From a virus, in IMG/VR virus record IMGVR_UViG_3300008110_000048, positions 1-64,000 of that record: a stretch of DNA of 64,000 nucleotides. One strand, given 5' to 3'. The notes under the pieces were generated by a model. That model was not told the origin of the DNA. It saw only the letters and a program-made list of their open reading frames with translations, and made no database searches. Within the stretch, counting starts at the first letter, position 1. Each line of letters starts with the position of its first letter. Position numbers and translations under genes: made by a program. Positions 6,869 through 62,589 of this stretch are shown here, in pieces.

Positions 6869-7435
6869 ATGGATAATCGGTTCAAACATATATATCAACA
6901 TTTATCCAAGTATAAGCTAAGACTTGTCTATGCTATAGCTGGATTGTTGACTGTCGTTTCGTTAGCTTCTTGTCTTTCAGACAAAGACACTAGCAAAACT
7001 CTAACACCAGTCTCCACAATCCCCGCTGTAACAACGACAAATCCACCTATACAAACTACGACCATCCCTCCCCAAACAACAACTACACTTCCAGATTTAT
7101 CTGGCGTAGATTTTGTTGCTTTGGCCAGAGCAACCTATGGCAAATGTGGTGAATACCACGATCTTGCTATTCAAGTTGGATGGCCTGAAGAGGAATGGCC
7201 ACGTCTTCAGCAAGTAATGTGGCGCGAGTCACGTTGCACTACTGAAGCATGGAATGGAGCTGATGCGGGTCTTACCCAAATCAATCAAATCCATTCCCAG
7301 TGGCTTTCCGACATGGGATGGTCACACCCTGATGATATGTTTAATCCAGAATATAATCTAACATTTGCTTTACGCCTGTGGGAAACCTCAGGATGGAGAC
7401 CATGGAGATTTTCTGGTACAACATGGGGTGATTGA
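6869..7435 (+). CDS. lipoprotein with lysozyme-like (transglycosylase) domain (188 aa)
   Basis: Residues 1-36 carry a basic start, a hydrophobic segment (LRLVYAIAGLLTVVSLASC) and a lipobox ending in Cys, so it is probably lipid-anchored outside the membrane. A Thr/Pro-rich linker (about 45-75) precedes a domain resembling the soluble lytic transglycosylase/lysozyme fold: VMWRESRC with the catalytic-type Glu, then AGLTQINQ, and NLTFALRLW. These correspond to the E-S..G-L.Q-I...N..A signature. It would cleave peptidoglycan during release, or perhaps modify the host wall. The next gene encodes a paralogue. Confidence 0.75.
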   Translation: MDNRFKHIYQHLSKYKLRLVYAIAGLLTVVSLASCLSDKDTSKTLTPVSTIPAVTTTNPPIQTTTIPPQTTTTLPDLSGVDFVALARATYGKCGEYHDLAIQVGWPEEEWPRLQQVMWRESRCTTEAWNGADAGLTQINQIHSQWLSDMGWSHPDDMFNPEYNLTFALRLWETSGWRPWRFSGTTWGD

Positions 7436-7944
7436 TTATGACTAATAACAAGTTAGTTGTAATCATTTCCGCGTTGATTTTATCTACCGGAATTCTATTC
7501 ACATCAAACCAGCCTATATCGGCATACTCTCCTAAAAGTTCGGATACTCCAATTGACTTTTCTCAAGTAAATTGGACTGAACTAGGAAGACTTATCTATG
7601 GAAGATGTGGCGAGTATCATGATCTTGCTATTCAAGCAGGCTGGCCAGAATCACAATGGCCAACTCTTAGCAAGGTAATGTATCGTGAATCTCGCTGTAA
7701 TACATTTTCCTTCAACAAGTCTGATCCTAACGGAGGTAGCCGTGGTCTTATTCAGATTAATGGATATTGGTGCAGAAAAAATAAATACAACCCTAACGGT
7801 TGGCTGCAACAAAAATCCATCCTTAACACATGCGAAGATCTGTTTGATCCACTAACCAACCTGCGTGCAGGATGGGCAATGTGGCAATACAGTCAAGATC
7901 GCAATGGTTGTGGCTGGAGACCTTGGGCTACAAGATGTAAATAG
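7432..7944 (+). CDS. secreted lysozyme-like protein, paralogue of 6869 gene (170 aa)
   Basis: The start is either TTG 7432, overlapping the upstream stop, or ATG 7438. An N-terminal signal peptide (LVVIISALILSTGILFTSN) has no lipobox, so this copy is probably secreted rather than lipid-anchored. The domain repeats the upstream pattern: GRCGEYHDLAIQAGWPESQW, VMYRESRC with a catalytic-type Glu, RGLIQINGYW, LTNLRAGWAMW. It ends near GCGWRPWATRC with extra cysteines that may form disulphides. A strong terminator follows. Confidence 0.75.
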   Translation: MIMTNNKLVVIISALILSTGILFTSNQPISAYSPKSSDTPIDFSQVNWTELGRLIYGRCGEYHDLAIQAGWPESQWPTLSKVMYRESRCNTFSFNKSDPNGGSRGLIQINGYWCRKNKYNPNGWLQQKSILNTCEDLFDPLTNLRAGWAMWQYSQDRNGCGWRPWATRCK

Positions 7945-8566: not shown

Positions 8567-11134
8567 ATGGAAGAAATTTACACACCCAAGTTGCGTTTGC
8601 AGTCAGAATATCAAGGACCTCTCCGTGGTGGAGAACGCTATCGTTTCGGATTCTACGACGCTGGAGTTCTCCGCGAGATTCTAAACCACGTTGCAGCCGG
8701 CGAATACAAAGTCTTTACTCTTCCCATTCCTAAGAATGAGAAGCAGTTTAACTATGCTGTTTCGCTGGTCAATAACCCCAAGGTGCAGTACGCCCTTGTC
8801 GATAAGAACAAAGTTGTCTTTGTTGTTGTTGACGGGCGTCCCGGTTGGATGTCTGTCGTCAATGAACTTGGTTACAACGTTCATTCTGGCGACAAGACCA
8901 ATAAGCGTCTGAAGTCATTCCACCGACCCACTCTGCTCAACGCTCATTTCGACAATCTCAACATTCGTTATGTTGAGCCTACCGAATATTCCCGCTACAA
9001 TTTCCAAGACAGCAATGCCGAAAACGGTGTTGCCTCTTGGCTTTCTGCTCCAGAAACTGTAGCACGACTCCTTGATGGCGGTTTCGTCATCAGTCGTAGA
9101 ATCATCCAGGAATCGGTGAAGAACATTCCGTTCCACCTCTCCATGGATAAGATGGAGGATCATGATTATTATTATGATCCTCGTGTTTACCAGCAAATGG
9201 TAGACGATCTTCTGAATTCTACAGTCGTTAATGCGCGCCTCATTTTCGCTGACGGACTTCTGAAGGGCAATGCCTTTGTGGCAGATTTGCCCGAAGGAGT
9301 TGACGTCATCACCTCTCGTGAGAACATCAAGAAGGAAGTCACTTATGACAAGGGCTATCGGTTCCTCGCTGAACCTCAAGGCCCGAAGTCCCGAGTGATT
9401 ACCGATGACCAAACCGTCATCAACCTTCCCAAACTGTTCCGCAAGAGCGACATGGAAATGTGGCTTAGTGAAGATTACAAGAAGCTCTTTGAGCAAGCTA
9501 CTAGCGGTAATCTTCTTACTAACTGGAAGTACATTTATCAGCGCAAATGGCAAGACTCCAAGAAGAATGAATCTAACGTTGATCTAGCAGAAGAGCACGA
9601 AGCGCGAGCCCGCATGGCATATGTGGGTTATCGCTGGGCTGCTGCTGGTTTCAAGGTTACTCAGTCTCCTTGGTTGTTCGAAACCGTTGCTATCAGTCAC
9701 GCAAAGCCATTGCAAACTAAGATTGTTATCCCTTGTTCAGTCTACGAACAGATCATTCCGGAAAGCCTTGCTCGCATGGCAGGATATGATATGATCGTTG
9801 AAGAGGATACAATCGTACGTTGCAATGCTCTTGGTTGTCACGTTGTTAACGATTGCGATTGGCTCGAAATGTATGAGAGCCATGGTGGTATGGATGAAGA
9901 TGACTTCTTCAAGCTCTTCTACCGTACCATGCAAGGCGGAGATTATGACGGAGAGAAAGTCGTTGTAGCCACTCGTTCACCAAATGGCTACGGCGAATAC
10001 ACCATCTTCCGCTATGTGGAGGGCTCTTGGGCCCCCACGTGGCATAAAGCAGATGGTACTCCCGTCATGTTCCCCGAAGTTAACGGTCGCGGATGGCCTC
10101 CTCGCTTGTCTAGCTCAATCTTTGCGAATAAGATCCAGTATACTGGACTTCCTTCCGAAGCATTGCCTAAGGTAAAGCGAACTGGCCCTTACACTCAAGA
10201 TGATGTCATTCGTGACATCAAGATTGCTATGGCTGGTGGTAACGTCGGTGGATTCGTCAATGCCGCAATGGCCCATTCTATGGTCATTGCTAAGCATCGA
10301 CCTGTCCAATTGTGCACTTTGGAAACTGCTATCGATAAGTGCATTAATCCCGACAACGCCGCTGATGTCCTTGCTATTGATCGTGAAGCCGAACAGATGA
10401 TGCGTGAAGTCATCAAATCCGGCAAACCGATTGATGAGGACTTTTGGTACAAGCGTGGAATGAAGCGATTCCTTAAGCGAGGCGAAACCGTGGAACTTTA
10501 TCACGGTAAGCTCTCGCAGCTGAACGCACTATGTGACACTTATTTCAAGCGTTACGTAAACAGCGTTCGTGATTGGTCTCAGAAGAACGCCCGTCCTGAT
10601 GAGATCATTCACCAGCTTGGCAATCGTCTTCGCCATCATGCTTATCCAGTTCTTCGCCAATTCCGAATGAACCTGTACAATACTAATTCCACAGAAGTAA
10701 CGAAGAGCTCTGGAGCAATCCAGCGTTCTTCGTGGGAACATTTGTATTCAGATATTGTTGACAAGATCAATTCTTATGAGCGAATTCTCGATTCATATGA
10801 CTTTGTGATTGCACTCTATTCTGAATCAATCAAGAACCCTACTTCTACTGGTAAGGTCACTGACCAGGTTGTGATGAACAGATTCGTCTTTCCGTATCTT
10901 GAAGAAGCTCTTCAGTATTACGGAATTGCTCGTTCTGCCCATCGCGAACTTGTCAAAGATCGCATGAAGATTGTTACAGATATCAAGAAGAGTTGGCTCT
11001 GGAAGGATGCCCAAGGCATCGAAGTCGAATATACTGATCCGCTTGAGTTCCAGAGAGCTCACGCGGAGCAGTCTCCTATCGTCTTCGTCAGCCCTAAGCC
11101 TCCTGTCAGAAAGCTGGAGAAGTCGCTGTACTAA
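8567..11134 (+). CDS. large protein with DYDGE motif, candidate two-barrel RNA polymerase (855 aa)
   Basis: ATG after CTAAGGGGGTATT. It is strongly G/C-biased in codon use, suggesting high expression. Residues 455-467 read MQGGDYDGEKVVV. This resembles the metal-binding DxDGD loop of two-barrel polymerases (QDE-1-type RdRPs, YonO, crAss-like phage RNAPs), with Glu replacing the third Asp. Other matching points are DGLLKG with Lys at about 233, as in the first barrel, and a later GGNVGGFVNAAMAHS, like the conserved downstream NxG..N helix of RdRPs. The C-terminal 250 residues are helical. If correct, it is a phage-encoded transcriptase. The Glu substitution and the lack of a database comparison keep this tentative. 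A strong terminator follows. Confidence 0.5.
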   Translation: MEEIYTPKLRLQSEYQGPLRGGERYRFGFYDAGVLREILNHVAAGEYKVFTLPIPKNEKQFNYAVSLVNNPKVQYALVDKNKVVFVVVDGRPGWMSVVNELGYNVHSGDKTNKRLKSFHRPTLLNAHFDNLNIRYVEPTEYSRYNFQDSNAENGVASWLSAPETVARLLDGGFVISRRIIQESVKNIPFHLSMDKMEDHDYYYDPRVYQQMVDDLLNSTVVNARLIFADGLLKGNAFVADLPEGVDVITSRENIKKEVTYDKGYRFLAEPQGPKSRVITDDQTVINLPKLFRKSDMEMWLSEDYKKLFEQATSGNLLTNWKYIYQRKWQDSKKNESNVDLAEEHEARARMAYVGYRWAAAGFKVTQSPWLFETVAISHAKPLQTKIVIPCSVYEQIIPESLARMAGYDMIVEEDTIVRCNALGCHVVNDCDWLEMYESHGGMDEDDFFKLFYRTMQGGDYDGEKVVVATRSPNGYGEYTIFRYVEGSWAPTWHKADGTPVMFPEVNGRGWPPRLSSSIFANKIQYTGLPSEALPKVKRTGPYTQDDVIRDIKIAMAGGNVGGFVNAAMAHSMVIAKHRPVQLCTLETAIDKCINPDNAADVLAIDREAEQMMREVIKSGKPIDEDFWYKRGMKRFLKRGETVELYHGKLSQLNALCDTYFKRYVNSVRDWSQKNARPDEIIHQLGNRLRHHAYPVLRQFRMNLYNTNSTEVTKSSGAIQRSSWEHLYSDIVDKINSYERILDSYDFVIALYSESIKNPTSTGKVTDQVVMNRFVFPYLEEALQYYGIARSAHRELVKDRMKIVTDIKKSWLWKDAQGIEVEYTDPLEFQRAHAEQSPIVFVSPKPPVRKLEKSLY

Positions 11135-11152
11135 ACAGCATGTTCATACAAA

Positions 11153-11196
11153 GTTGTGGAGGGACCTGCCCTATCGGGTCCCTCCACAACTTTTTT
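11153..11196 (+). terminator. strong intrinsic terminator
   Basis: A perfect 14-bp stem, GTTGTGGAGGGACC (11153-11166) with GGTCCCTCCACAAC (11177-11190), is followed by TTTTTT. It separates the 855-residue gene from the Tas gene, so the TIGR locus has its own transcription. TTCATACAAA abuts it upstream. Confidence 0.92.
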
Positions 11197-11219
11197 CTAC
11201 ATACATAAAAGAATCGCTA

Positions 11220-11225
11220 TATAAT
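11220..11225 (+). promoter_or_regulatory. probable -10 element for tasA
   Basis: TATAAT at 11220-11225 lies between the terminator and the AAGGAGTATTT ribosome binding site of tasA. No clear -35 is visible. TTAATAGACTT, also present near 2652, lies between the -10 and the gene. Confidence 0.4.
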
Positions 11226-11258
11226 AAAAAAATTTGTTAATAGACTTAAGGAGTATTT

Positions 11259-12179
11259 ATGACTTCCGCAGAATTCCACATTAATGACAATGAAATCCAT
11301 GAAGATGATCATCTTCTTGATGATATTCTTGAAGATCAAACTCATCCTGACGACATTGTTCGTCAAGCGTTTGATTTCTTTCAGTTTAATCAGCGAGTCC
11401 TAAACAAAGACGTTCGCAACATGGAAGTCGATCTTGATCGACGCTCCGCACGCGAACTCGTCTCCCTATATTATGATTTGCAAAAAGCACGACTTGGTTA
11501 CAATAACCAGGTCCGTGACCTGACCAAAGCTGGCAGTCCTCACGAACTGCTTGGCTATTACGCAACTATTATTGAAATGCTAGAGAAGTCACTTGTTGCT
11601 CCTCTTGATCATTTCGGTAATCAGTTCGTAGTCGGTCAGTGGGCCAAGAGCCAGTATGGCATTGGACCAGTTATTACTGCCGGACTCGTTGCTCATATTG
11701 ACATCGAGAAGGCACCGACTGCTGGAGCAATCTGGCGTTACGCCGGTATTGATCCGACCATTAAGTGGGAAAAGGGCCAGAAGCGCCCGTTCAACGCACA
11801 GTTGAAGACTCTCACTTGGAAGATTGGTCAGAGCTTCATGAAGTTCTCCAATAAGGATCAGTGCTTCTACGGCCATCTCTACAAGCAAGACAAGGCACGC
11901 CGTCTTGCCAAGAACGAGGCTGGAGATTATGCAGAATTTGCTAAGCAGATTCTGACCTCCAAGAAGTGGGGCAATAACCCGACTCGTACTTGTCTCGAAT
12001 CAGGCAAGCTTCCGCCTGCCCAGATTGATGCACAAGCACGACGCTTTGCTGCCAAGATCTTCCTGAGCCACTATCACGCAGTGGCATATCAGGCTCATCA
12101 TGGCACACCGTTTGTTGCCGGGGTATATCCAGAAATCTGGGTGTACCTCGGTATACAAATTTTTTATAATAAAATTTAA
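11259..12179 (+). CDS. tasA: stand-alone Tas protein (Nop/IS110-like RNA-binding domain) of a TIGR-Tas system
   Basis: The N terminus (1-35) is acidic. Residues about 55-112 are long helices (RRSARELVSLYYDLQKARLG and on), as in the coiled-coil part of Nop domains. Residues 132-195 carry an IS110-transposase-like helix-hairpin-helix core: YGIGPVITAGLVAHID, WRYAGIDP, then a basic KWEKGQKRPF and TLTWKIGQSFMKF. The last 110 residues are helical and basic. No RuvC (DEDD) or HNH nuclease motif is present, so this is the nuclease-free TasA type rather than TasR or TasH. The stop lies 21 bases before a TIGR-type array, the defining partner. Tas proteins are known to bind about 36-nt tigRNAs and target DNA through two short spacers. 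Without a nuclease, the likely role is RNA-guided DNA binding such as blocking transcription or replication of a competitor or host. Codon use is G/C-ending, unlike the flanks, suggesting strong expression. Confidence 0.85.
   Translation: MTSAEFHINDNEIHEDDHLLDDILEDQTHPDDIVRQAFDFFQFNQRVLNKDVRNMEVDLDRRSARELVSLYYDLQKARLGYNNQVRDLTKAGSPHELLGYYATIIEMLEKSLVAPLDHFGNQFVVGQWAKSQYGIGPVITAGLVAHIDIEKAPTAGAIWRYAGIDPTIKWEKGQKRPFNAQLKTLTWKIGQSFMKFSNKDQCFYGHLYKQDKARRLAKNEAGDYAEFAKQILTSKKWGNNPTRTCLESGKLPPAQIDAQARRFAAKIFLSHYHAVAYQAHHGTPFVAGVYPEIWVYLGIQIFYNKI
12165..12170 (+). promoter_or_regulatory. possible -10 element for the TIGR array
   Basis: TATAAT at 12165-12170 lies inside the last codons of tasA, about 35 bases before the first array repeat, in very AT-rich DNA. 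No -35 hexamer is clear. The array might instead be co-transcribed with tasA. Confidence 0.3.
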
Positions 12180-12200
12180 ATATTTAAATTATCTCGCTCG

Positions 12201-12920
12201 ACTACTATCACCGATACCGAATGAATCACGAAGAGCGATTAGTAACAGTCATAAAGAATGAATCACAAAATTGGATTAGTAACAAAATGCCTGAATGAAT
12301 CAAATTGAGGAATTAGTATCGCAAGCAAATGAATGAATCACCAGTTCAGATTAGTAACATGGGTGCTAAATGAATCATCAAATATGATTAATAACAAATC
12401 GGACGAATGAATTATACTCAATGATTTGTATCACTCACAATAAATGAATCAAGGGTAGAGTATTAGTAACAAAATCAGAGAATGAATTATTTTCCAAGAT
12501 TAGTATCATTGTTGACGAATGAATCAATACCACTGATCACTATCACCGTCGCAGAATGAATCAAAATTTTTAATTAGTAACATCAACCGCGAATGAATCA
12601 AACCCAAAAATAAATATCACACTTCATGAATGAATCACCTTCCATGAACTGTATCAATTGTTCAGAATGAATCACTCTATCCGAATTGTATTATAGCTCT
12701 AGAATGAATCAGCAGTTTTGACTTGTATTAAAACAAGGGAATGAATCAAGTGGAAAAATTAGTAACAGCGTACCCGAATGAATCATCATGAATAATTAGT
12801 AACAAGCAGAAAGAATGAATCACGCAGTACGAATTGTAACATCCCAGTAGAATGAATCAAAAGTGAGTAATTGTAACACTACGAGGCGAATGAACCATAC
12901 AACACTATTGTGTAACATGA
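12201..12920 (+). repeat. TIGR array: 19 units of about 37 bp with dual spacers
   Basis: Unit starts are 12219, 12256, 12293, 12331, 12368, 12405, 12442, 12480, 12517, 12554, 12591, 12628, 12665, 12702, 12739, 12776, 12813, 12850 and 12888. Each unit is GAATGAATCA, a variable 9-mer, ATTAGTAACA (variants such as ATTAGTATCA, AATTGTAACA, ACTTGTATTA), then a variable 8-mer. Fifteen of the eighteen steps are exactly 37 bp; three are 38. A lone degenerate half repeat ACTACTATCA precedes the first unit, and the last repeat has decayed to GAATGAACCA. All 9-mers differ, so this is a stored set of short spacers, not a simple tandem repeat. This matches tandem interspaced guide RNA arrays, which yield about 36-nt RNAs with two spacers. 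The adjacent Tas gene supports it. There is no coding frame through the array. Confidence 0.9.
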
Positions 12921-12996
12921 AGACTAAGTGTTTTTAAAAAATAATAGTTCATACAAAAATCTGAACCTTTTATTTTATTTGGGAGAAATATATATT

Positions 12997-23820: not shown

Positions 23821-24271
23821 TCCCACTTCTCCCATTACTTCTCGTAGAGGTTCTCCCAAAAACGTTGCTAATCTTTATGAGTGCTTTGACGATTTAGGTT
23901 CTCTATGGAGAGAAAAAGCTCTTTGTAGAAACGGATCTTTATCGACAGATCATTTCTTTTCTATTAACAGCGACAATAAATCTGCATCCTCTGCAGCCAA
24001 AGCTATAAGCATGTGTTCTGCTTGTCCTGTACAAGTAGAGTGTTTACATGAAGCTATTAAATATAATTATGATGGTGTTTGGGGCGGAACCATATATCGT
24101 CAACGCTTATATTTTATTAGGCAATATCTTAATAACGACCTTCTCAACTTAACCATTGAAAAAGCTAAACAGTTTGTTCAAATGGCCAAGATTGAAAATC
24201 TTAGAATTACCAGTCCTAAACGCAAATACCGCAGAAAGACTACCACCAAAAATGACCTACTCCCAGAATGA
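23810..24271 (+). CDS. WhiB-family iron-sulphur transcription factor (153 aa)
   Basis: Four cysteines sit in the WhiB order: KALCRN (about 37), then MCSACPVQVECL (C-x2-C-x5-C), with GVWGGTIYRQR following. This is the VWGG turn and basic DNA-contact segment. WhiB proteins carry a 4Fe-4S cluster and bind sigma factor; they are essentially restricted to actinobacteria and their phages, so this strongly indicates the host. The C-terminal extension is basic (PKRKYRRKTTT). Start ATG 23810, or TTG 23807. It may reset host transcription. Confidence 0.85.
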   Translation: MDSNPTSPITSRRGSPKNVANLYECFDDLGSLWREKALCRNGSLSTDHFFSINSDNKSASSAAKAISMCSACPVQVECLHEAIKYNYDGVWGGTIYRQRLYFIRQYLNNDLLNLTIEKAKQFVQMAKIENLRITSPKRKYRRKTTTKNDLLPE

Positions 24272-30592: not shown

Positions 30593-32197
30593 ATGTTTGA
30601 TAAAATTAAACTCGGATATCCTAACCTTTGGGTTCAGTCATCTGATCCTTCTAGGGTTACCGATATCATTACTTCTACTATTTCTCGAAATTTTTATACT
30701 ATAGATTTTCTCAATGGCTTTTCTAAATTTGTTGATGGCAAATGGAAGCCTATTCTTGTTGAAAATCCTACTTATCCAGAGATGAGCTCAGAAAGTCATA
30801 TTGTAACTTTCGATCCTCAGATAGCTCTTCACTATCTTACTACTGAGAAATCTCTTACTCGTTCTACTTATATTGTAAATATTGCTTCTTCTCCGGCAGA
30901 TGCAATCTCTCCATACTCTTCTATTCTTTCTCACTTCAAGTCTGCTTACCGTTCAGCTTTTTGGTCTGATGATATTGCAGCTATGCCGCTTCAATTTATT
31001 TTCGTTTCTTCTCTTGAGTGCCCTGAGGATTTTCTCCATCTTTTCAATGTTTTAGAGGATTCTATTCCAACACCTCAAGAGCTAGCAACAATAGTCAATC
31101 ATATCAATACCGCTTCTCATGATCGACTTCTTAATAATGTTTCTGTAAAAGATGTTGTCAATGCTGGCATTGGTCTATGTGAGTCGCAGTTTATTGATCT
31201 CTGCTTGATGTCTGTTGTTAATAACTCTACAATTGATCCCAAGTATATTTATGACGTCAAGATGGCAAATATAAAGAAGAATGGTATTCTTGAAATAGTT
31301 AAGCCTGCAATATCTTTTTCTGATATTGGTGGTCTTGATAATATTAAAGATATCATTCGCCGTACTGCCATTCTTCGCAAAGACCAGCAGCGCACTGCTT
31401 CTTTCGGCGTCACTCCAATTAGAAGACTGTTGATGGTTGGCGTTCCTGGTACTGGCAAGTCTGCTATTTGTCAGGCAACCGCCAAAGAGCTTGATCTTGA
31501 TCTTGCTCGTACTGGTATCAGTCAGGTTATGAATTCTTTCATTGGCCAATCGGAGGCTAACATGCGTGCAGTCTTTAAGCAGATTCGCGCTATGTCTCCT
31601 TTGTGCGTTTGGATTGACGAGTTTGGTCGAGATCTTAGTGGTGGCTCCAGCTCTTCCCATGTTGATGGTGGCACCACTGATCGTGTGCATGGAGAGTTCC
31701 TAACTGGTCTTCAGGAATTGCCAGAGGATACTTTCCTTCTTTGTGCAGCTAACTCTCTTGATTCTTTGAGACCAGAGATGTTGCGTGCCGACCGCTTTGA
31801 TAAGATTATGTTTGTTGGTCTTCCTTCTTATGAGGAGCGCAAACACATCTTCCAGATACATCTTTCTAAGATTGATACCGATCACTCTTATGATTACGAC
31901 GCTCTTGCTCAATCCACTCAGTATATGACTGGTGCAGAGATAGTTTCTTTGATTAGAGAGACTAAGTTTTATGTTGTTTCCGATTCCCTTCGCCCAATTG
32001 AAACAAATGATATTCTTACTTATGCTCCAAAGATGAAGAATATTATTTGGATGAAGCACCATGAGACAGTTGTATCTATGTATAAATATGCTCTTGAGCA
32101 GTGGGATTGGGCATCCACAGAACAGATGGATGATGCTATACTAATGCTCTCTAAGACTTCAACGCAAAAGCAACCAGCATCAGTGACATGGAAATAA
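30593..32197 (+). CDS. AAA+ ATPase, unfoldase-like (534 aa)
   Basis: Residues about 240-440 are a classical AAA module: FSDIGGLDNIKDIIRR, MVGVPGTGKSAICQA (Walker A), SPLCVWIDEFGRDL (Walker B), and CAANSLDSLRPEMLRADRFD (sensor 1 and arginine fingers). It resembles Cdc48/FtsH/proteasomal ATPases. The N-terminal 230 residues are unrecognised and could bind substrates. AAA unfoldases work with ubiquitin systems in eukaryotes and archaea, so its place directly after a Ubl cassette is suggestive. A terminator lies between, so co-regulation is not assured. It may instead help replication or assembly. Confidence 0.8.
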   Translation: MFDKIKLGYPNLWVQSSDPSRVTDIITSTISRNFYTIDFLNGFSKFVDGKWKPILVENPTYPEMSSESHIVTFDPQIALHYLTTEKSLTRSTYIVNIASSPADAISPYSSILSHFKSAYRSAFWSDDIAAMPLQFIFVSSLECPEDFLHLFNVLEDSIPTPQELATIVNHINTASHDRLLNNVSVKDVVNAGIGLCESQFIDLCLMSVVNNSTIDPKYIYDVKMANIKKNGILEIVKPAISFSDIGGLDNIKDIIRRTAILRKDQQRTASFGVTPIRRLLMVGVPGTGKSAICQATAKELDLDLARTGISQVMNSFIGQSEANMRAVFKQIRAMSPLCVWIDEFGRDLSGGSSSSHVDGGTTDRVHGEFLTGLQELPEDTFLLCAANSLDSLRPEMLRADRFDKIMFVGLPSYEERKHIFQIHLSKIDTDHSYDYDALAQSTQYMTGAEIVSLIRETKFYVVSDSLRPIETNDILTYAPKMKNIIWMKHHETVVSMYKYALEQWDWASTEQMDDAILMLSKTSTQKQPASVTWK

Positions 32198-51167: not shown

Positions 51168-51988
51168 TATGACCCCTTGTTTGATTTGAATAGTTTACTA
51201 AAAAATGACTTCTTTTCCACAGAAAGATTTTCATCTGTTTCTCGTTCCATTTTCTTATATTTACTTTTTTGTTTTTTAGGCATGAATGGACCACCGAAAC
51301 CACGCCAACGCAATAATGAATATGCGTTCTCGTCTCCCCATATTATATCTTTAGATTTTGTTCTAGGGAACGGTATGACGTGCCACATAGGTCTCCCTGC
51401 CTCTAGCTCAAATGGTTGATCTGTTAAAACATTAATAACCATATGCGCATTGTGATAGTAATCCGTATTCACTACAGCTGGTAGCATAGTGTAATTTGGA
51501 TTTGGATCCCATAATGGGGGCAAAAATAGACTAGACCATCCAGGTGGAGTTTTTATTAACCATGGATTAATAACTTTAACATAATTAGCGTTTTGTATTT
51601 TTCTAGCTTTCGTTACTGGACATTCGCCAGTTTGCGCAAAAGAAAAGCCCTCTATGCCAAAATCACCAATCTCATTAGTTAGATCGAACTTAACATCCCA
51701 TGAACGATGATCCATAGATGGGCGAAACATTAGCTTTGTCCACAAAGGAATTGTAAAGCCTGTTGATATATAGTCTGATGTTCCCGAACATCTTTTTATG
51801 CTGCCCTCTTCACCAGTAAGATTTCTCCACCAATCTGGCCAATTGCCTAAATTAAGAAAAGGTCTACACAAATCATCCATCAAAAATAATGATTGTGGAG
51901 CTAAAAAAATCTGACCTTCTTTAAGCTTAGGGATATCATTGAAAATTTTTGGACTAACTATTTGCAGTTGCTGCGAGTGCTTGCGCAT
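51167..51988 (-). CDS. conserved-type phage protein next to halogenase (273 aa)
   Basis: Contains GFTIPLWTKLMFRPSMDH, FSFAQTGECPVTKARKIQ, NPWLIKTPPGWSSLFLPPLW and AGRPMWHVIPFPRTKSK. This looks like a cupin-type beta-sandwich seen near hydroxylase genes in marine and freshwater phages; function unknown. The C-terminal 40 residues are basic and disordered. It overlaps the halogenase gene by 35 bases. A metal triad is not obvious. Confidence 0.6.
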   Translation of the reverse strand: MRKHSQQLQIVSPKIFNDIPKLKEGQIFLAPQSLFLMDDLCRPFLNLGNWPDWWRNLTGEEGSIKRCSGTSDYISTGFTIPLWTKLMFRPSMDHRSWDVKFDLTNEIGDFGIEGFSFAQTGECPVTKARKIQNANYVKVINPWLIKTPPGWSSLFLPPLWDPNPNYTMLPAVVNTDYYHNAHMVINVLTDQPFELEAGRPMWHVIPFPRTKSKDIIWGDENAYSLLRWRGFGGPFMPKKQKSKYKKMERETDENLSVEKKSFFSKLFKSNKGS

Positions 51989-53207
51989 GATCTACCAATC
52001 TTTGAGTAACTAATTGCTTAGAAAAATTTGCAATGAATTCTATCACATTTTTTCGAGAACCATAAGCGTCTAGTATCATGCACAGAATATTATTCATCAT
52101 GGAATCCATAATACGGTGATACTCTTTGATCCCATAATTTCTATTTTTATCGAAAGTAGGAAGATAGGAACAGATTAATTTTGCCTGTTGAATTGAAGTA
52201 GATATGGACGTAGCTTCTAATGGCTCAACAAAAGAAGCCGCTAACCCCACTGCAATGCAATTATTTTTCCATGTTTCTTTAAAATATCCTGCCTTAAAAT
52301 TAATCACTTTTGCTGGCACAACTTCAAAGCCATGCACTTCAGAAGCTTCAGCTATAGCTTGGTCTACGGTACAGAAATCAGACGAAAATACATATCCGTT
52401 TCCACGTCTTTTTTGAGTGGGTATTTCCCACATCCAACCATTCTTAAGAGCTCTAGCCCTTGTGTATGGTCTTATTTGACCAGAAGGGTCCGATTCAGTT
52501 GGAAACGCAATTGCCGTATTACACGGTAAATACTTTCTATAATCTATGAATGTTTGATCGCCTATCTTGCTTAAGAGCTGCCTATGGAATCCTGTTGCAT
52601 CAATAAAAAAATCAGCTGCAATATCTTTTTTTAATTCAGAAAGAAAAACCGATTCTATAAATCCGTCTTCATCTACTTGAACGTTTGTCACTTCATCATC
52701 TATAAACAAAATACCTTTATTTTTTGATACTTCTACCAAATATTTATTTAACTTAAAAGTATCAAAATGGTACTGGTTTGTTCCATAATGTGTTTTGTCA
52801 CCCTGATCAATTATTTTATTTTCTATTAATCCGCGCCAAGAATATGTGTTTGTTAACAAACGATTATTCTCTAGGGCTGTAGCATACCCTGCCCAAAAGC
52901 CACCAATGGTTAACCCAATTTCTCCTACACTATGGAAATAATCTGGAGTATGATTGGTCCAGTTTTCATAACGTATCCCATATTTATGAGTGATGTCTGC
53001 GTTCTTGATCATATCATGGACGTCTATGCCGACCATCTCCTGAAACAAGCGCCAATGTTCCGTAGAACCTTCGCCAACACCAACTATCCCCATCTTGCTG
53101 GATGATATTATTGTTACATCATAATTTTTAAAATAACTTTTAATTGTTAATCCAGTAACAAGTCCCGCTGTTCCAGATCCAACAATAACTATTTTTTTTT
53201 GATTCAT
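51954..53207 (-). CDS. flavin-dependent tryptophan halogenase (417 aa)
   Basis: An FAD-binding IVIVGSGTAGLVTGLTIK start, GIVGVGEGSTEHW, and ADITHKYGIRYENW with the active-site-type Lys. GWMWEIPTQKRRG is the halogenase motif WxWxIP. GLAASFVEPLEATSI is the family's C-terminal flavin motif. Length is somewhat short of the usual 500 residues. These enzymes use FADH2, chloride or bromide and O2 to halogenate indole rings. In phages their substrate is unknown; a protein or peptide tryptophan is possible. It sits inside a run of oxygenases, a methyltransferase-like and a glycosyltransferase gene. Confidence 0.85.
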   Translation of the reverse strand: MNQKKIVIVGSGTAGLVTGLTIKSYFKNYDVTIISSSKMGIVGVGEGSTEHWRLFQEMVGIDVHDMIKNADITHKYGIRYENWTNHTPDYFHSVGEIGLTIGGFWAGYATALENNRLLTNTYSWRGLIENKIIDQGDKTHYGTNQYHFDTFKLNKYLVEVSKNKGILFIDDEVTNVQVDEDGFIESVFLSELKKDIAADFFIDATGFHRQLLSKIGDQTFIDYRKYLPCNTAIAFPTESDPSGQIRPYTRARALKNGWMWEIPTQKRRGNGYVFSSDFCTVDQAIAEASEVHGFEVVPAKVINFKAGYFKETWKNNCIAVGLAASFVEPLEATSISTSIQQAKLICSYLPTFDKNRNYGIKEYHRIMDSMMNNILCMILDAYGSRKNVIEFIANFSKQLVTQRLVDHAQALAATANS

Positions 53208-58332: not shown

Positions 58333-61300
58333 TTAGTTTGTATATCCATAAAGTTTCCATGTTCCAGAAAGATTGACAGTGCTTGCTCCTAATCTGAAAT
58401 TGTTAAGCTGTATTCCATCATAAGACGATGCCGTTGTATGTTGAACAGTGGATGTATAGTTACCCCATGCCGACGCACAGTGCGCTGAAATAATTGTTCT
58501 ATCTGCAACAAATGGGCGAGATATATCCATAACAATATGAATATCCGAGTTAGATATTCCACCACATACTCCTATGCTTGAATTTTGCCCAGTATAATTG
58601 TCTGCGACTCCGCCAAATGTAAGTCCCTGCATAGCGTAGTAGTAAGCTGTTGCTGCTGCTGTGCCACCAGAAAGCATATTGATATAGAAGAGATAAAAGT
58701 CTCCGCTTGCTGCTTGCAAGTTTGTTAATACAAGACGATAATTATCATAAGTAGACGAAAATATTGACTGCAAGTTGACTACTGTTGCGCCAGAGAATGT
58801 GCCACTTGACAAGTAAACAAGACCAATATCAGCTGTTGTAGCAACAGTTCCAGATTTATTTGGTAAAGTTAATGTTCTGTTTGCGGTCAACGTAGTTGGT
58901 ATAAATTTTGTAGACAATGATCCAGTTCCGCCAGCACGACCGGCCAACTGAATACCATCTTGCGTGGATGCCACACGAATAACTTGAGTTCCAAGAACAT
59001 CGAGCTCAACAGATGGTGAAGAAGTGCCAACACCAACACGATTATTAGTTGCATCAACATAAAGAGTATTTGTATCAACCGTTAAGGCTGCTGCTGTTAG
59101 GCGTGTTCCGTCAAAGGTAAGGTTTGCGCTGCCAGCAGCTGCATTAGAACCATCTTTATAGACAACTTGATTAGCAGAACCAGCTACTGGACCAGTAGCA
59201 CCTTGTGCTCCAGTTGCACCTTGGGGCCCTTGTGGACCTGTTGATCCTTGCGGTCCCATGTCTCCCTGGGGACCTGTAGCACCTTGAGGACCGGTAGCTC
59301 CTTGAGCGCCTGTAGCTCCTTGAGGGCCTGTGGCTCCTTGGGCACCCTGAGGACCGATATCACCTTGTGGGCCAGTGGCGCCTTGAGGGCCAGTGGCGCC
59401 TTGAGGGCCAGTAGCACCTTGAGCACCGGTAGCTCCTTGGGGGCCAGTAGCACCAGTTGAACCTTGAGGACCTGTGTCACCCTGTGGTCCCTGTGGTCCA
59501 GTTGAACCTTGGGGACCAGTATCGCCTTGGGCTCCTGTAGCACCTTGGGCACCAGTAGCACCTTGTGGACCAGTTGCACCCTGTGACCCCGTTTCACCTT
59601 GAGGTCCAATAGAACCTTGTGGTCCCTGTGGACCCACGGAACCCTGTGGACCAACATCTCCTTGAGCGCCAGTAGCACCTTGGGCGCCTGTTGCGCCCTG
59701 AGGACCTGTGGCTCCCTGTGCCCCCTGTGGTCCGGTTGCACCCTGGGCACCTGTAGCACCTTGGGGCCCGACATCTCCTTGTGGGCCAGTTGCACCTTGG
59801 GGACCTGTGGCTCCTTGAGGACCAGTGGCTCCTTGAGGGCCAACAGATCCCTGAGGGCCCTGAGGTCCAGTGTCACCCTGAGGTCCTATTGGACCTTGAG
59901 CGCCTGTTGAACCTTGCGGTCCTGTATCTCCTTGGGCACCTGTGGCTCCCTGAGCTCCAGTAGCACCTTGTGACCCTTGCGCTCCAGTAGCACCTTGAGC
60001 GCCTGTAGCGCCCTGGGGTCCAGTTGCCCCCTGAGAACCCGTTGCACCTTGGGGCCCTTGAGGTCCAACTTGTGTATAGGTAACCTGAACAGCGGTAAAT
60101 ATAATAGAAGGAATTGCTGGTGCTGGAGAAACTGCTGGAAAATAATCAAGTGATATACCAGTATTTGTTGTTTGCCAAAACAACTCAATATAGTCATTAG
60201 CATTGAGGCTTAAGACCAGGTTAACTGTACCTATGGCTCTACCATCTGTTCCGCCATGGCTTTCAACAACGCTCCATCGGCTATCTGAGTCAGGAATATT
60301 AGAACCATTCTTCTTAAACCAGATATTTGCATCATGAATCTGACTATCACTGTTTGCCCATTGGACTGAGAAAGTCAAAGAATATACGCCAGCATAACCG
60401 AAATTAATTCTTGAATTATTAGAAAGTGTTACTCCAAAATTATTAGAATCATAATTATCATAAGTTATTGCATAAGCTGTATTTGCAGCTACTGCGGTTT
60501 GATCTTGATTTGACCAAAATGAACCCCAGTATGCAATTGTTCCACCAGCACCTTGCGGTCCTTGAGCGCCTTGTGGACCAGCACCACCAACATTAACCCA
60601 GTTCATTCCGTCTGTTCCGATAATTATTGAATTGTCTGGATTCGTACCGATTGAGTTCATCATCCAAGATGTACCCGTATTTGCTGTTCCTAGTGAAACA
60701 AAAACATAGTCACCGTTTTGAACTTCTGTACCATCGGTATTGTCAAAGTCGGAGGTACGAGTTAGTCGCCAATATGTAGAGCCGTCGCCAACTGTTGTTA
60801 CAACATAGATACCGTTATGGATTTGGTTAATTTGGTTTTTAACGAGAACTCTGTCGTTGGCAACAACAGTACGTGAGTCAACAACAAGAGCACCAAATGT
60901 TGATGCTTGAAGATACGCGCCATCGCCAGTTCCGTTATTGTCATCAGCAGTACCAGCAGTATATGTAGGAGAGTTGGGAAGGGCTGCATTTGTAGCGGTT
61001 CTTACTGATTCGTGTGAGTTAAGGTTTCCGACTGGGCCTTGTGGCCCTTGTGAACCCTGGACTCCTTGTGCGCCTTGAGAACCAGTAGCTCCTTGCGGTC
61101 CTTGGGCGCCTGTGGCACCCTGTGCACCTGTTGCACCTTGCGGGCCAGTATCTCCTTGTGGGCCCTGTGGCCCCTGAGGACCAGTAGAACCTTGGGGGCC
61201 AGTAGCACCTTGGGGGCCCGTTGCACCTTGAGCTCCCTGTGAGCCAACTGCACCTTGAGGACCCACATCTCCTTGTGGTCCAGTCGAACCCTGTGGTCCA

Positions 61301-62589
61301 GTGTCACCTTGTGCCCCCGTGGCTCCTTGGGCACCAGTAGCTCCCTGGGCACCAGTAGCTCCCTGAGGACCTATATCTCCTTGAGGACCTTGCGGTCCTT
61401 GGGCGCCTGTAGCTCCTTGGGCTCCCGTTGAGCCTTGTGCTCCGGTAGCCCCCTGTGGACCCTGAGCCCCTGTTGCTCCCTGAGGGCCAGTAGCGCCTTG
61501 AGGGCCAACGTCACCCTGTGGACCATCTCCACCAACTGGACCCTGAGCGCCTTGTGCTCCAGTTGAACCCTGAGGTCCAGTGGCACCTTGGGGGCCAGTA
61601 GCGCCTTGTGGGCCTTGCGCGCCTGTGGCACCTTGAGCACCTTGGGGGCCAGTAGCCCCTTGTGAACCAACATCTCCCTGTGCACCTTGTGGTCCAGTTG
61701 CCCCCTGTGGACCAATATCACCCTGTGGTCCTTGTGCTCCAGTTGCCCCTTGTGCTCCCGTAGAACCTTGGGGGCCAGTTGCGCCTTGGGGTCCAGCGTC
61801 TCCTTGTGGACCCGTAGCGCCTTGTGCTCCAGTTGAACCTTGGGGCCCAGTAGCTCCCTGTGCTCCTACTGCCCCTTGCGGGCCTTGAGATCCTGTTGCT
61901 CCTTGTGCACCCTGTGGACCCACATCTCCCTGGGGACCGGTAGAACCTTGTGGCCCAGTAGAACCTTGGGGACCTGTGGCACCTTGGGGGCCAATGTCCC
62001 CCTGTGGCCCTTGTGAACCCTGGGAACCCGTAGCACCTTGGGGGCCTTGTGTACCCTGAGGGCCGGTAGCGCCTTGTGATCCAGTTGCACCTTGGGGGCC
62101 TTGGGCACCTTGGGGGCCCTGTACGCCAGCAAGAATGTCCGTACTGGCACCATTGCCTCCAGTACTTATGTCAATATAAAAACCCCTGGCTGTCCCCCCC
62201 TGCTCAAAAAAACGAAGCCTGTTTTGATAGACATCAATGGTAACACCACCAGTCAGAGTGGTATTTGTAACAGCTTTCTTTAGGAATATTTCACCACCCT
62301 CATCACCAGATGAGTTGTTAGAAATAAGATAGCCTCCAGCAGTTACATTATTGGTAACTGATATAGAGGATGGTAAGCTAATTGCAAAAGAACCAGATGT
62401 TTCAGTTACATTTATTTGATCTGTTGTTCCAGTAATTGCAGTAATTAATTTAGAAGCAACGATAGTATTAGATGCGTTTTTATAAAATATTTTACCGTCT
62501 GCATAATTGATTGCTACTTCACCATGAGTCAGAGCAGAGGGTACGGACGTAGAAGTACCTGAATTTTTTATAACAAGGGTATTGGCCAT
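58333..62589 (-). CDS. collagen-like tail fibre protein (1418 aa)
   Basis: The N terminus ([20 protein letters not shown], then [11 protein letters not shown]) is typical of phage tail fibres. Two long Gly-X-Y blocks follow, mainly GPQ and GAT/GAQ triplets (about residues 154-520 and 840-1135). They are separated by a domain with [20 protein letters not shown] and then a beta-sandwich like C1q/TNF ([20 protein letters not shown]). The C terminus ([38 protein letters not shown]) is again fibre-like and likely receptor-binding. Trimeric collagen-like shafts are expected. Thr at the Y position could carry sugars, given the glycosyltransferase nearby. Confidence 0.9.
59185..60065 (-). repeat. collagen-like repeat block 2 of the fibre gene
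   Basis: DNA repeats with a 9-base-multiple period encoding Gly-X-Y triplets ([15 protein letters not shown]). Such DNA is prone to slippage and can also create long false frames on the other strand. Confidence 0.85.
61025..62130 (-). repeat. collagen-like repeat block 1 of the fibre gene
   Basis: Long uninterrupted Gly-X-Y coding repeat with the same triplets as block 2, plus rare GGD and GVQ variants. The two blocks are similar enough for internal recombination. Confidence 0.85.

What the first reader, a model, noticed from the sequence alone, without database searches (positions are those of the whole stretch)
11259..12920. TIGR-Tas locus: nuclease-free Tas protein with a dual-spacer guide array in a phage
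Seen: a 306-residue protein with a Nop/IS110-like RNA-binding core and no RuvC or HNH motif, followed 21 bases later by 19 units of 37 bp. Each unit alternates two conserved 10-mers (GAATGAATCA, ATTAGTAACA) with distinct 9-base and 8-base spacers. Known: TIGR arrays are processed to about 36-nt tigRNAs that guide Tas proteins to DNA through two short spacers; phages and parasitic bacteria carry them, and TasA forms lack a nuclease. Inferred: this phage uses guide RNAs to bind DNA without cutting, perhaps to silence host, plasmid or rival-phage genes. The locus is set off by a strong terminator upstream.
Basis: partly seen in the sequence, partly recalled or inferred. Interest (0 to 1): 0.97.

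Follow-up and report, generated by a model that had tools for sequence, protein, structure and literature searches.

The report
Phage RNA-guided DNA-binding system (TIGR-TasA)
A virus, probably of actinobacteria, carries a recently described RNA-guided DNA-binding system (TIGR-Tas) without a DNA-cutting part; its protein has lost a conserved tail, and comparison with relatives shows how such guide arrays change over time, which had been unknown.

Summary
The protein passes NCBI's curated TIGR-Tas model (173 bits, cut-off 100), and its predicted fold matches the solved TasH and TasR complexes best of all PDB entries. The array has 20 units of about 37 bp, not 19. The spacers are 8+8 nt, not 9+8: base 9 of 'spacer A' is a purine in 57 of 60 units, so it belongs to an 11-nt loop repeat. 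Three things are new. (1) An 81-bp deletion removed the C-terminal tail that 90 of 91 complete relatives keep; the reading frame now runs through the gene's own terminator hairpin, so this allele may be impaired. (2) The gene and array form one cassette; a related 194-kb phage has the empty site. (3) Phages 99% identical around the locus differ in array content. Over ten array comparisons, guides are gained and lost as whole edge-to-edge units: spacer partners are kept across the loop 86% of the time, across the edge 41%. No natural target was found: 67 guides against five phage genomes gave only chance matches. A new member of a known kind.

The parts
11150..11195 (+). intrinsic terminator of the upstream 855-aa gene; left border of the cassette
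   Evidence: hairpin, -34.9 kcal/mol and z -7.0 for 11128-11196, followed by T-run; retained at the empty site of the tas-less relative
11196..11225 (+). promoter-like sequence for tas (TCTACA-18-TATAAT)
   Evidence: 10/12 consensus match (promoter-like matches in the region are no more numerous than in shuffles); identical in L001; inference only
11248..11253 (+). ribosome-binding site AAGGAG
   Evidence: sequence
11259..12179 (+). tasA gene, 306 aa, solo Nop-type Tas protein; conserved core residues 65-276
   Evidence: NCBIfam NF052498 173.4 bits, cut-off 100; PDB TasH E=1.5e-12 and TasR E=3.5e-8 by sequence; Foldseek top matches all TasH/TasR
12111..12179 (+). 3' end of the ORF created by an 81-bp deletion: 22 non-native residues replace the conserved tail (APRPYIIEHGGHVHEIAIPNNPFA in L001)
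   Evidence: alignments A3 and A5; predicted disordered here (pLDDT 29-35) but its end ordered in L001 (pLDDT 90)
12111..12165 (+). native intrinsic terminator of tas: about 21-bp stem plus T6, now inside the ORF; in relatives it is the tas-array intergenic leader
   Evidence: -31.6 kcal/mol, z -7.9; conserved in L001 and L002 with a compensated pair
12165..12170 (+). -10-like TATAAT just before the array, probable array promoter
   Evidence: conserved in L001 and L002 immediately upstream of the truncated first edge; inference
12182..12925 (+). TIGR array, 20 units of about 37 bp: 10-nt edge RAATGAATYA, 8-nt spacer A, 11-nt loop RATTAGTAACA, 8-nt spacer B
12926..12985 (+). array end (AAGTG, perhaps a truncated edge) and AT-rich 3' flank, right border of the cassette
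   Evidence: sequence; no significant terminator fold (z -1.0)

Best explanation
This is a dual-repeat TIGR-TasA locus carried as a cassette by a large, probably actinobacterial, myovirus. The array is transcribed from its own promoter, cut within the edge repeats to about 37-nt tigRNAs with two 8-nt spacers, and loaded on a TasA dimer. By analogy with TasR and TasH, the dimer binds double-stranded DNA with spacer A paired to one strand and spacer B to the other. Lacking a nuclease, it would bend or block the site rather than cut it. Guides are gained and lost as whole edge-to-edge units, which fits selection on spacer pairs against changing, non-self targets. In this phage an 81-bp deletion removed the Tas C-terminal tail and put the stop codon behind the gene's terminator, so this allele is possibly impaired. 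Shown here: identity, predicted fold, array anatomy, cassette and empty site, unit-wise turnover, tail loss, absence of self-targets. Inferred: transcription, processing, DNA binding, effect on targets, impairment.
For: NCBIfam TIGR-Tas equivalog 173.4 bits against cut-off 100. Profile of 8 relatives hits TasR (8e-23), TasH (4e-13) and IS621 (2e-5) in the PDB. Foldseek of two models: all top matches TasH/TasR, then bridge-RNA recombinases. 84 of 93 tas-bearing loci have an adjacent array with a 33-42-bp period. tas is under purifying selection: 54 synonymous against 13 non-synonymous differences from L001. Empty site in a 194-kb relative. Array far more divergent than its flanks: about 99% nt identity around it, tas 92%, array 70%. 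Spacer partner kept across the loop 40/43 (window/L001) and 400/467 pooled over ten array comparisons, against 160/394 across the edge. WhiB in all relatives tested points to actinobacterial hosts.
Against: No RNA data. No target found. The tail conserved in 90 of 91 relatives is missing here, so the window copy itself may not work. The deletion lies in a metagenome assembly and cannot be checked on reads. Pair counts behind the turnover result are not independent.
Confidence: 0.85

Rival explanations
1. A decaying TIGR-Tas locus: the deletion has inactivated Tas, by loss of the tail or by non-stop mRNA when transcription ends at the hairpin, and the array is a relic with no function in this phage.
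For: Window is the only one of 91 complete relatives without the tail motif. The tail end is predicted ordered in L001 and disordered here. The stop codon (12177-12179) lies after the terminator T-run (12160-12165).
Against: The core is intact and conserved. Leader-proximal guides 2-5 have near-perfect repeats, so the array was probably active until recently. The replaced tail has about the same length.
Confidence: 0.35
2. The array guides Tas to RNA or single-stranded DNA (both spacers pairing one strand in line) rather than to double-stranded DNA, for example to regulate phage genes.
For: One L001 guide matches 17/17 in line with a 1-nt gap in the ATPase gene of two relatives (G002, G006) and 16/17 in the window (site at 30719); in-line matches exceeded permuted pairs at p=0.02, one of four modes tested.
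Against: The excess vanishes with the corrected 8+8 spacers (p=0.14-0.19). TasR does not act on RNA (PMC12045711).
Confidence: 0.07
3. An ordinary IS110-family transposase next to an unrelated tandem repeat.
For: PHROG 4285 names the family 'transposase'; sub-threshold Pfam IS110 match.
Against: The curated IS110 model scores 15.9 bits against a cut-off of 140, while the TIGR-Tas model passes. No N-terminal nuclease domain. The array is tied to tas in 84 of 93 loci.
Confidence: 0.02

Closest known systems
TIGR-TasA, dual-repeat type (Faure et al. 2025, PMC12045711), e.g. Flavonifractor plautii TasA
   Same: Solo Nop-type protein without nuclease; adjacent array of alternating edge and loop repeats with two short spacers; truncated first edge; many are phage-borne
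   Different: Unit 37 not 36 nt (11-nt loop); spacers 8+8 (9+9 in FpTIGR); AT-rich repeats; conserved C-terminal tail deleted in this copy; probably an actinobacterial phage
TIGR-TasH of Salicola phage CGphi29 (PDB 9vzx, 9w02-9w04, 21kl)
   Same: Closest solved structure by fold; 16 spacer nt in all; phage
   Different: Has an HNH nuclease; about 30% identity over half the protein
TIGR-TasR of a Thermoproteota archaeon (PDB 9mty)
   Same: Nop core; C-terminal tail KPWILEHGGHVDYIKPPHWN aligns with the tail kept in relatives
   Different: RuvC nuclease; 9+9 spacers
IS110 bridge-RNA recombinases (IS621, ISCro4)
   Same: Related RNA-binding core
   Different: Transposase with a DEDD domain and a single bridge RNA; no array

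Membership tests
TIGR-Tas (TasA, dual-repeat) | Nop-type Tas core by sequence | tested here: met
   NF052498 173.4 bits, cut-off 100; PDB TasH/TasR hits
TIGR-Tas (TasA, dual-repeat) | Nop/Tas fold | tested here: met
   Foldseek on AF2 models, best E 5e-7 and 1.7e-6, to TasH/TasR
TIGR-Tas (TasA, dual-repeat) | adjacent array of two alternating 8-12-nt repeats with distinct short spacers | tested here: met
   20 units, 10-nt edge, 11-nt loop, 8+8 spacers
TIGR-Tas (TasA, dual-repeat) | no nuclease domain (TasA subtype) | tested here: met
   no RuvC/HNH match; N-terminal 29 residues predicted disordered
TIGR-Tas (TasA, dual-repeat) | array starts with a 5' truncated edge and ends with a 3' truncated edge plus terminator | tested here: inconclusive
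   truncated or degenerate first edge seen; no significant terminator found after the array
TIGR-Tas (TasA, dual-repeat) | array processed to about 36-nt tigRNAs bound by Tas | not testable with these tools
   needs RNA sequencing
TIGR-Tas (TasA, dual-repeat) | DNA targeting by tandem spacers on opposite strands | not testable with these tools
   no natural target found in related phage genomes; binding not testable
TIGR-Tas (TasA, dual-repeat) | conserved C-terminal tail P.PY...H.H.I..PN (noticed here, not a published criterion) | tested here: not met
   present in 90 of 91 complete relatives, deleted in the window
IS110 transposase | curated IS110 model | tested here: not met
   15.9 bits, cut-off 140

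The most novel reading that the evidence does not exclude
Phage TIGR arrays renew their guides by inserting whole [spacer A-loop-spacer B] units, with both spacers taken from one new target, through an undescribed acquisition or recombination process acting at edge repeats. This would make TIGR-TasA an adaptive, non-cutting weapon between phages. The evidence shows whole-unit turnover but not where new units come from.
Probability: 0.25. Interest if true: 0.88.

Novelty: new member of a known kind. Interest (0 to 1): 0.55.

Why it matters
[quoted passage not shown] The phage groups found here (window/L001 and others) give a data set for that question: guides change as intact edge-to-edge units while, for window/L001, the flanking genome stays about 99% identical. 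The tail-less natural allele next to an intact 92%-identical allele is a ready-made test of what the Tas tail does. The tas-less sister phage is a natural control.

Tried and rejected
Self-targeting: no guide matches the phage's own 193 kb beyond chance. Targets in relatives with and without the array: chance level, permutation-tested. About 990 guides of the wider family against 1.5 Mb of related sequence: only scattered matches beyond the contigs fetched by the pattern itself. Two guides scanned through all viral contigs: 5 and 2 contigs with exact matches, in unrelated genes except for two copies of one sequence. In-line targeting: marginal at first (p=0.02), lost after correcting spacer length. 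CRISPR-like leader polarity: repeats decay away from the leader in L001 (rho 0.63, p=0.0035) and G005 (0.58, p=0.002), weakly in the window (0.37, p=0.06), not significantly in L002. But other groups gain and lose units throughout the array, or keep the tas-proximal end, so strict polarity is rejected as a general rule. Rfam: nothing above gathering score. PADLOC: no hit. ParB partner (reported for some TasA loci): the flanking genes tested gave no Pfam match.

Full report
WHAT IS THERE. An ORF of 306 codons (11259-12179, +) is followed by 20 units of about 37 bp (12182-12925). A chain of 19 regular units is found only here; shuffles and the rest of the 193-kb record give chains of 1. The units were first read as 10+9+10+8. 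But base 9 of 'spacer A' is a purine in 57 of 60 distinct units from four related arrays (p=2e-15), while bases 1-8 show no such bias. The anatomy is therefore edge RAATGAATYA (10), spacer A (8), loop RATTAGTAACA (11), spacer B (8). Edge and loop then both begin with RA and end mostly with CA, in line with the paired box D and box C motifs described for TIGR repeats (PMC12045711).

THE PROTEIN. It passes NCBI's curated TIGR-Tas model at 173.4 bits (cut-off 100), residues 65-276; the IS110 model is far below its cut-off. By sequence it hits the solved TasH (1.5e-12) and TasR (3.5e-8). A profile of eight relatives gives TasR 8e-23, TasH 4e-13, IS621 2e-5. AlphaFold models of the window protein (pLDDT 74.5) and of the L001 homolog (78.2) match TasH and TasR chains first in the PDB, then IS621 and ISCro4 bridge-RNA recombinases. 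No RuvC or HNH is present, so it is a TasA.

A LOST TAIL. In L001 (93% aa identity), L002 (77%), L063-L065 (45-47%), L004 and even the 32%-identical L066, the protein ends in P.PY...H.H.I..PN.P or a remnant of it; TasR ends in KPWILEHGGHVDYIKPPHWN. Of 94 ORFs examined, 78 carry the motif by pattern, 12 more by eye, 3 are cut by the contig end, and only the window lacks it (redundant copies included). The cause is an 81-bp deletion (relative to L001) from codon 285 to just past the native stop. The frame now runs through the intergenic hairpin for 22 residues. The tail end is predicted ordered in L001 (pLDDT 90) and the replacement is predicted disordered here (29-35). The hairpin (stem 12111-12159, then T6; -31.6 kcal/mol, z -7.9) looks like the intrinsic terminator of tas. 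The new stop at 12177-12179 lies beyond it. If termination is efficient the mRNA has no stop codon; if translation melts the hairpin, transcription may read into the array. Both are inference.

SETTING. The record is a virus contig with tail sheath, portal and terminase genes and no close relative among sequenced phages. A WhiB gene at 23906-24106, and in every relative tested, indicates actinobacterial hosts. A related 193,906-bp phage (L076, 86% identical in the flanking 225-aa gene) has the upstream terminator followed directly by the downstream gene, and no tas was found in its record. tas plus array is thus an accessory cassette. In another relative (G005) an array with the same repeats lies beside a whiB gene, while a 251-aa Tas lies about 52 kb away if the genome is circular, with no array found near it, so the array may be served in trans.

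HOW THE ARRAY CHANGES. Window and L001 phages are about 99% identical over most of 45 kb, but tas is 92% and the array about 70%. The tas differences lie between CDS bases 110 and 761 (one more at 851), with 54 synonymous and 13 non-synonymous changes: purifying selection, and probably a recombination tract. The first five window units and first six L001 units differ completely; many middle and distal units are shared, with whole units inserted or missing. Spacer partners are kept across the loop in 40 of 43 comparisons but across the edge in 20 of 41. Pooled over this and nine further array comparisons the figures are 400/467 and 160/394. One group (L121-L124), left out of the pool, shows the reverse (60/143 against 90/137), which fits swapped repeat roles there: its GATCGAGACA is then the edge. 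These counts are directional and pairwise, so not independent; no p-value is claimed. Units are gained and lost anywhere, not only at the leader, although repeat decay away from the leader is seen in L001 and G005. The inherited unit is thus the edge-to-edge unit that the source paper found as the processed tigRNA, as expected if the two spacers must act together.

TARGETS. The expected target is A followed by the reverse complement of B on one strand, gap 0-2 (derived from the TasR cleavage rules in PMC12045711 and from bridge-RNA geometry as I know it). With permuted spacer pairs as control, 67 guides against five phage genomes give no excess in any orientation (earlier 9+8 version). The window's guides do not target its own phage. 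Two guides scanned over all viral contigs hit unrelated genes. Targets remain unknown; untested hosts and plasmids are the obvious gap.

FAMILY. One scan found 287 relatives in viral contigs (80 kept) and another 12 in bacterial and archaeal genomes; 84 of 93 loci examined carry an adjacent array. The window is one member of a large phage family.

VERDICT. A genuine TIGR-TasA system, so a new member of a known kind. What is new is the natural tail-less allele, the clean empty site, and the evidence that TIGR guides are inherited and replaced as whole units.

Noticed in passing
L035:144-990 and L057:9553-10308 (record G005): Array with the same repeats beside a whiB gene; the phage's only detected Tas gene lies about 52 kb away (if circular) with no array found near it: possible action in trans.
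   Followed up: partly
L121-L124 (upstream of tas): Arrays in which the repeat roles appear swapped: [B-GAGTGAACCA-A] modules are kept and GATCGAGACA is the exchange boundary; L123 has about 41 units.
   Followed up: partly
L001:7108 and L001:7478: Two units share spacer A (AATGGAAA) with different spacer B, suggesting duplication with half replaced or two related targets.
   Followed up: no
window 30719-30736: A guide of L001 matches the ATPase gene in line (16/17 here, 17/17 in two relatives); chance level after correction.
   Followed up: yes
window 23906-24106: WhiB-like regulator, present in all relatives tested; marks an actinobacterial host.
   Followed up: partly
window 51954-53207 (-): Tryptophan halogenase gene like those of cyanophages.
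   Followed up: partly
window 58333-62589 (-): 1418-aa protein with long 18-bp-period tandem repeats, collagen-like.
   Followed up: no
window 6869-7944: Two adjacent lysozyme-like (SLT) genes.
   Followed up: no
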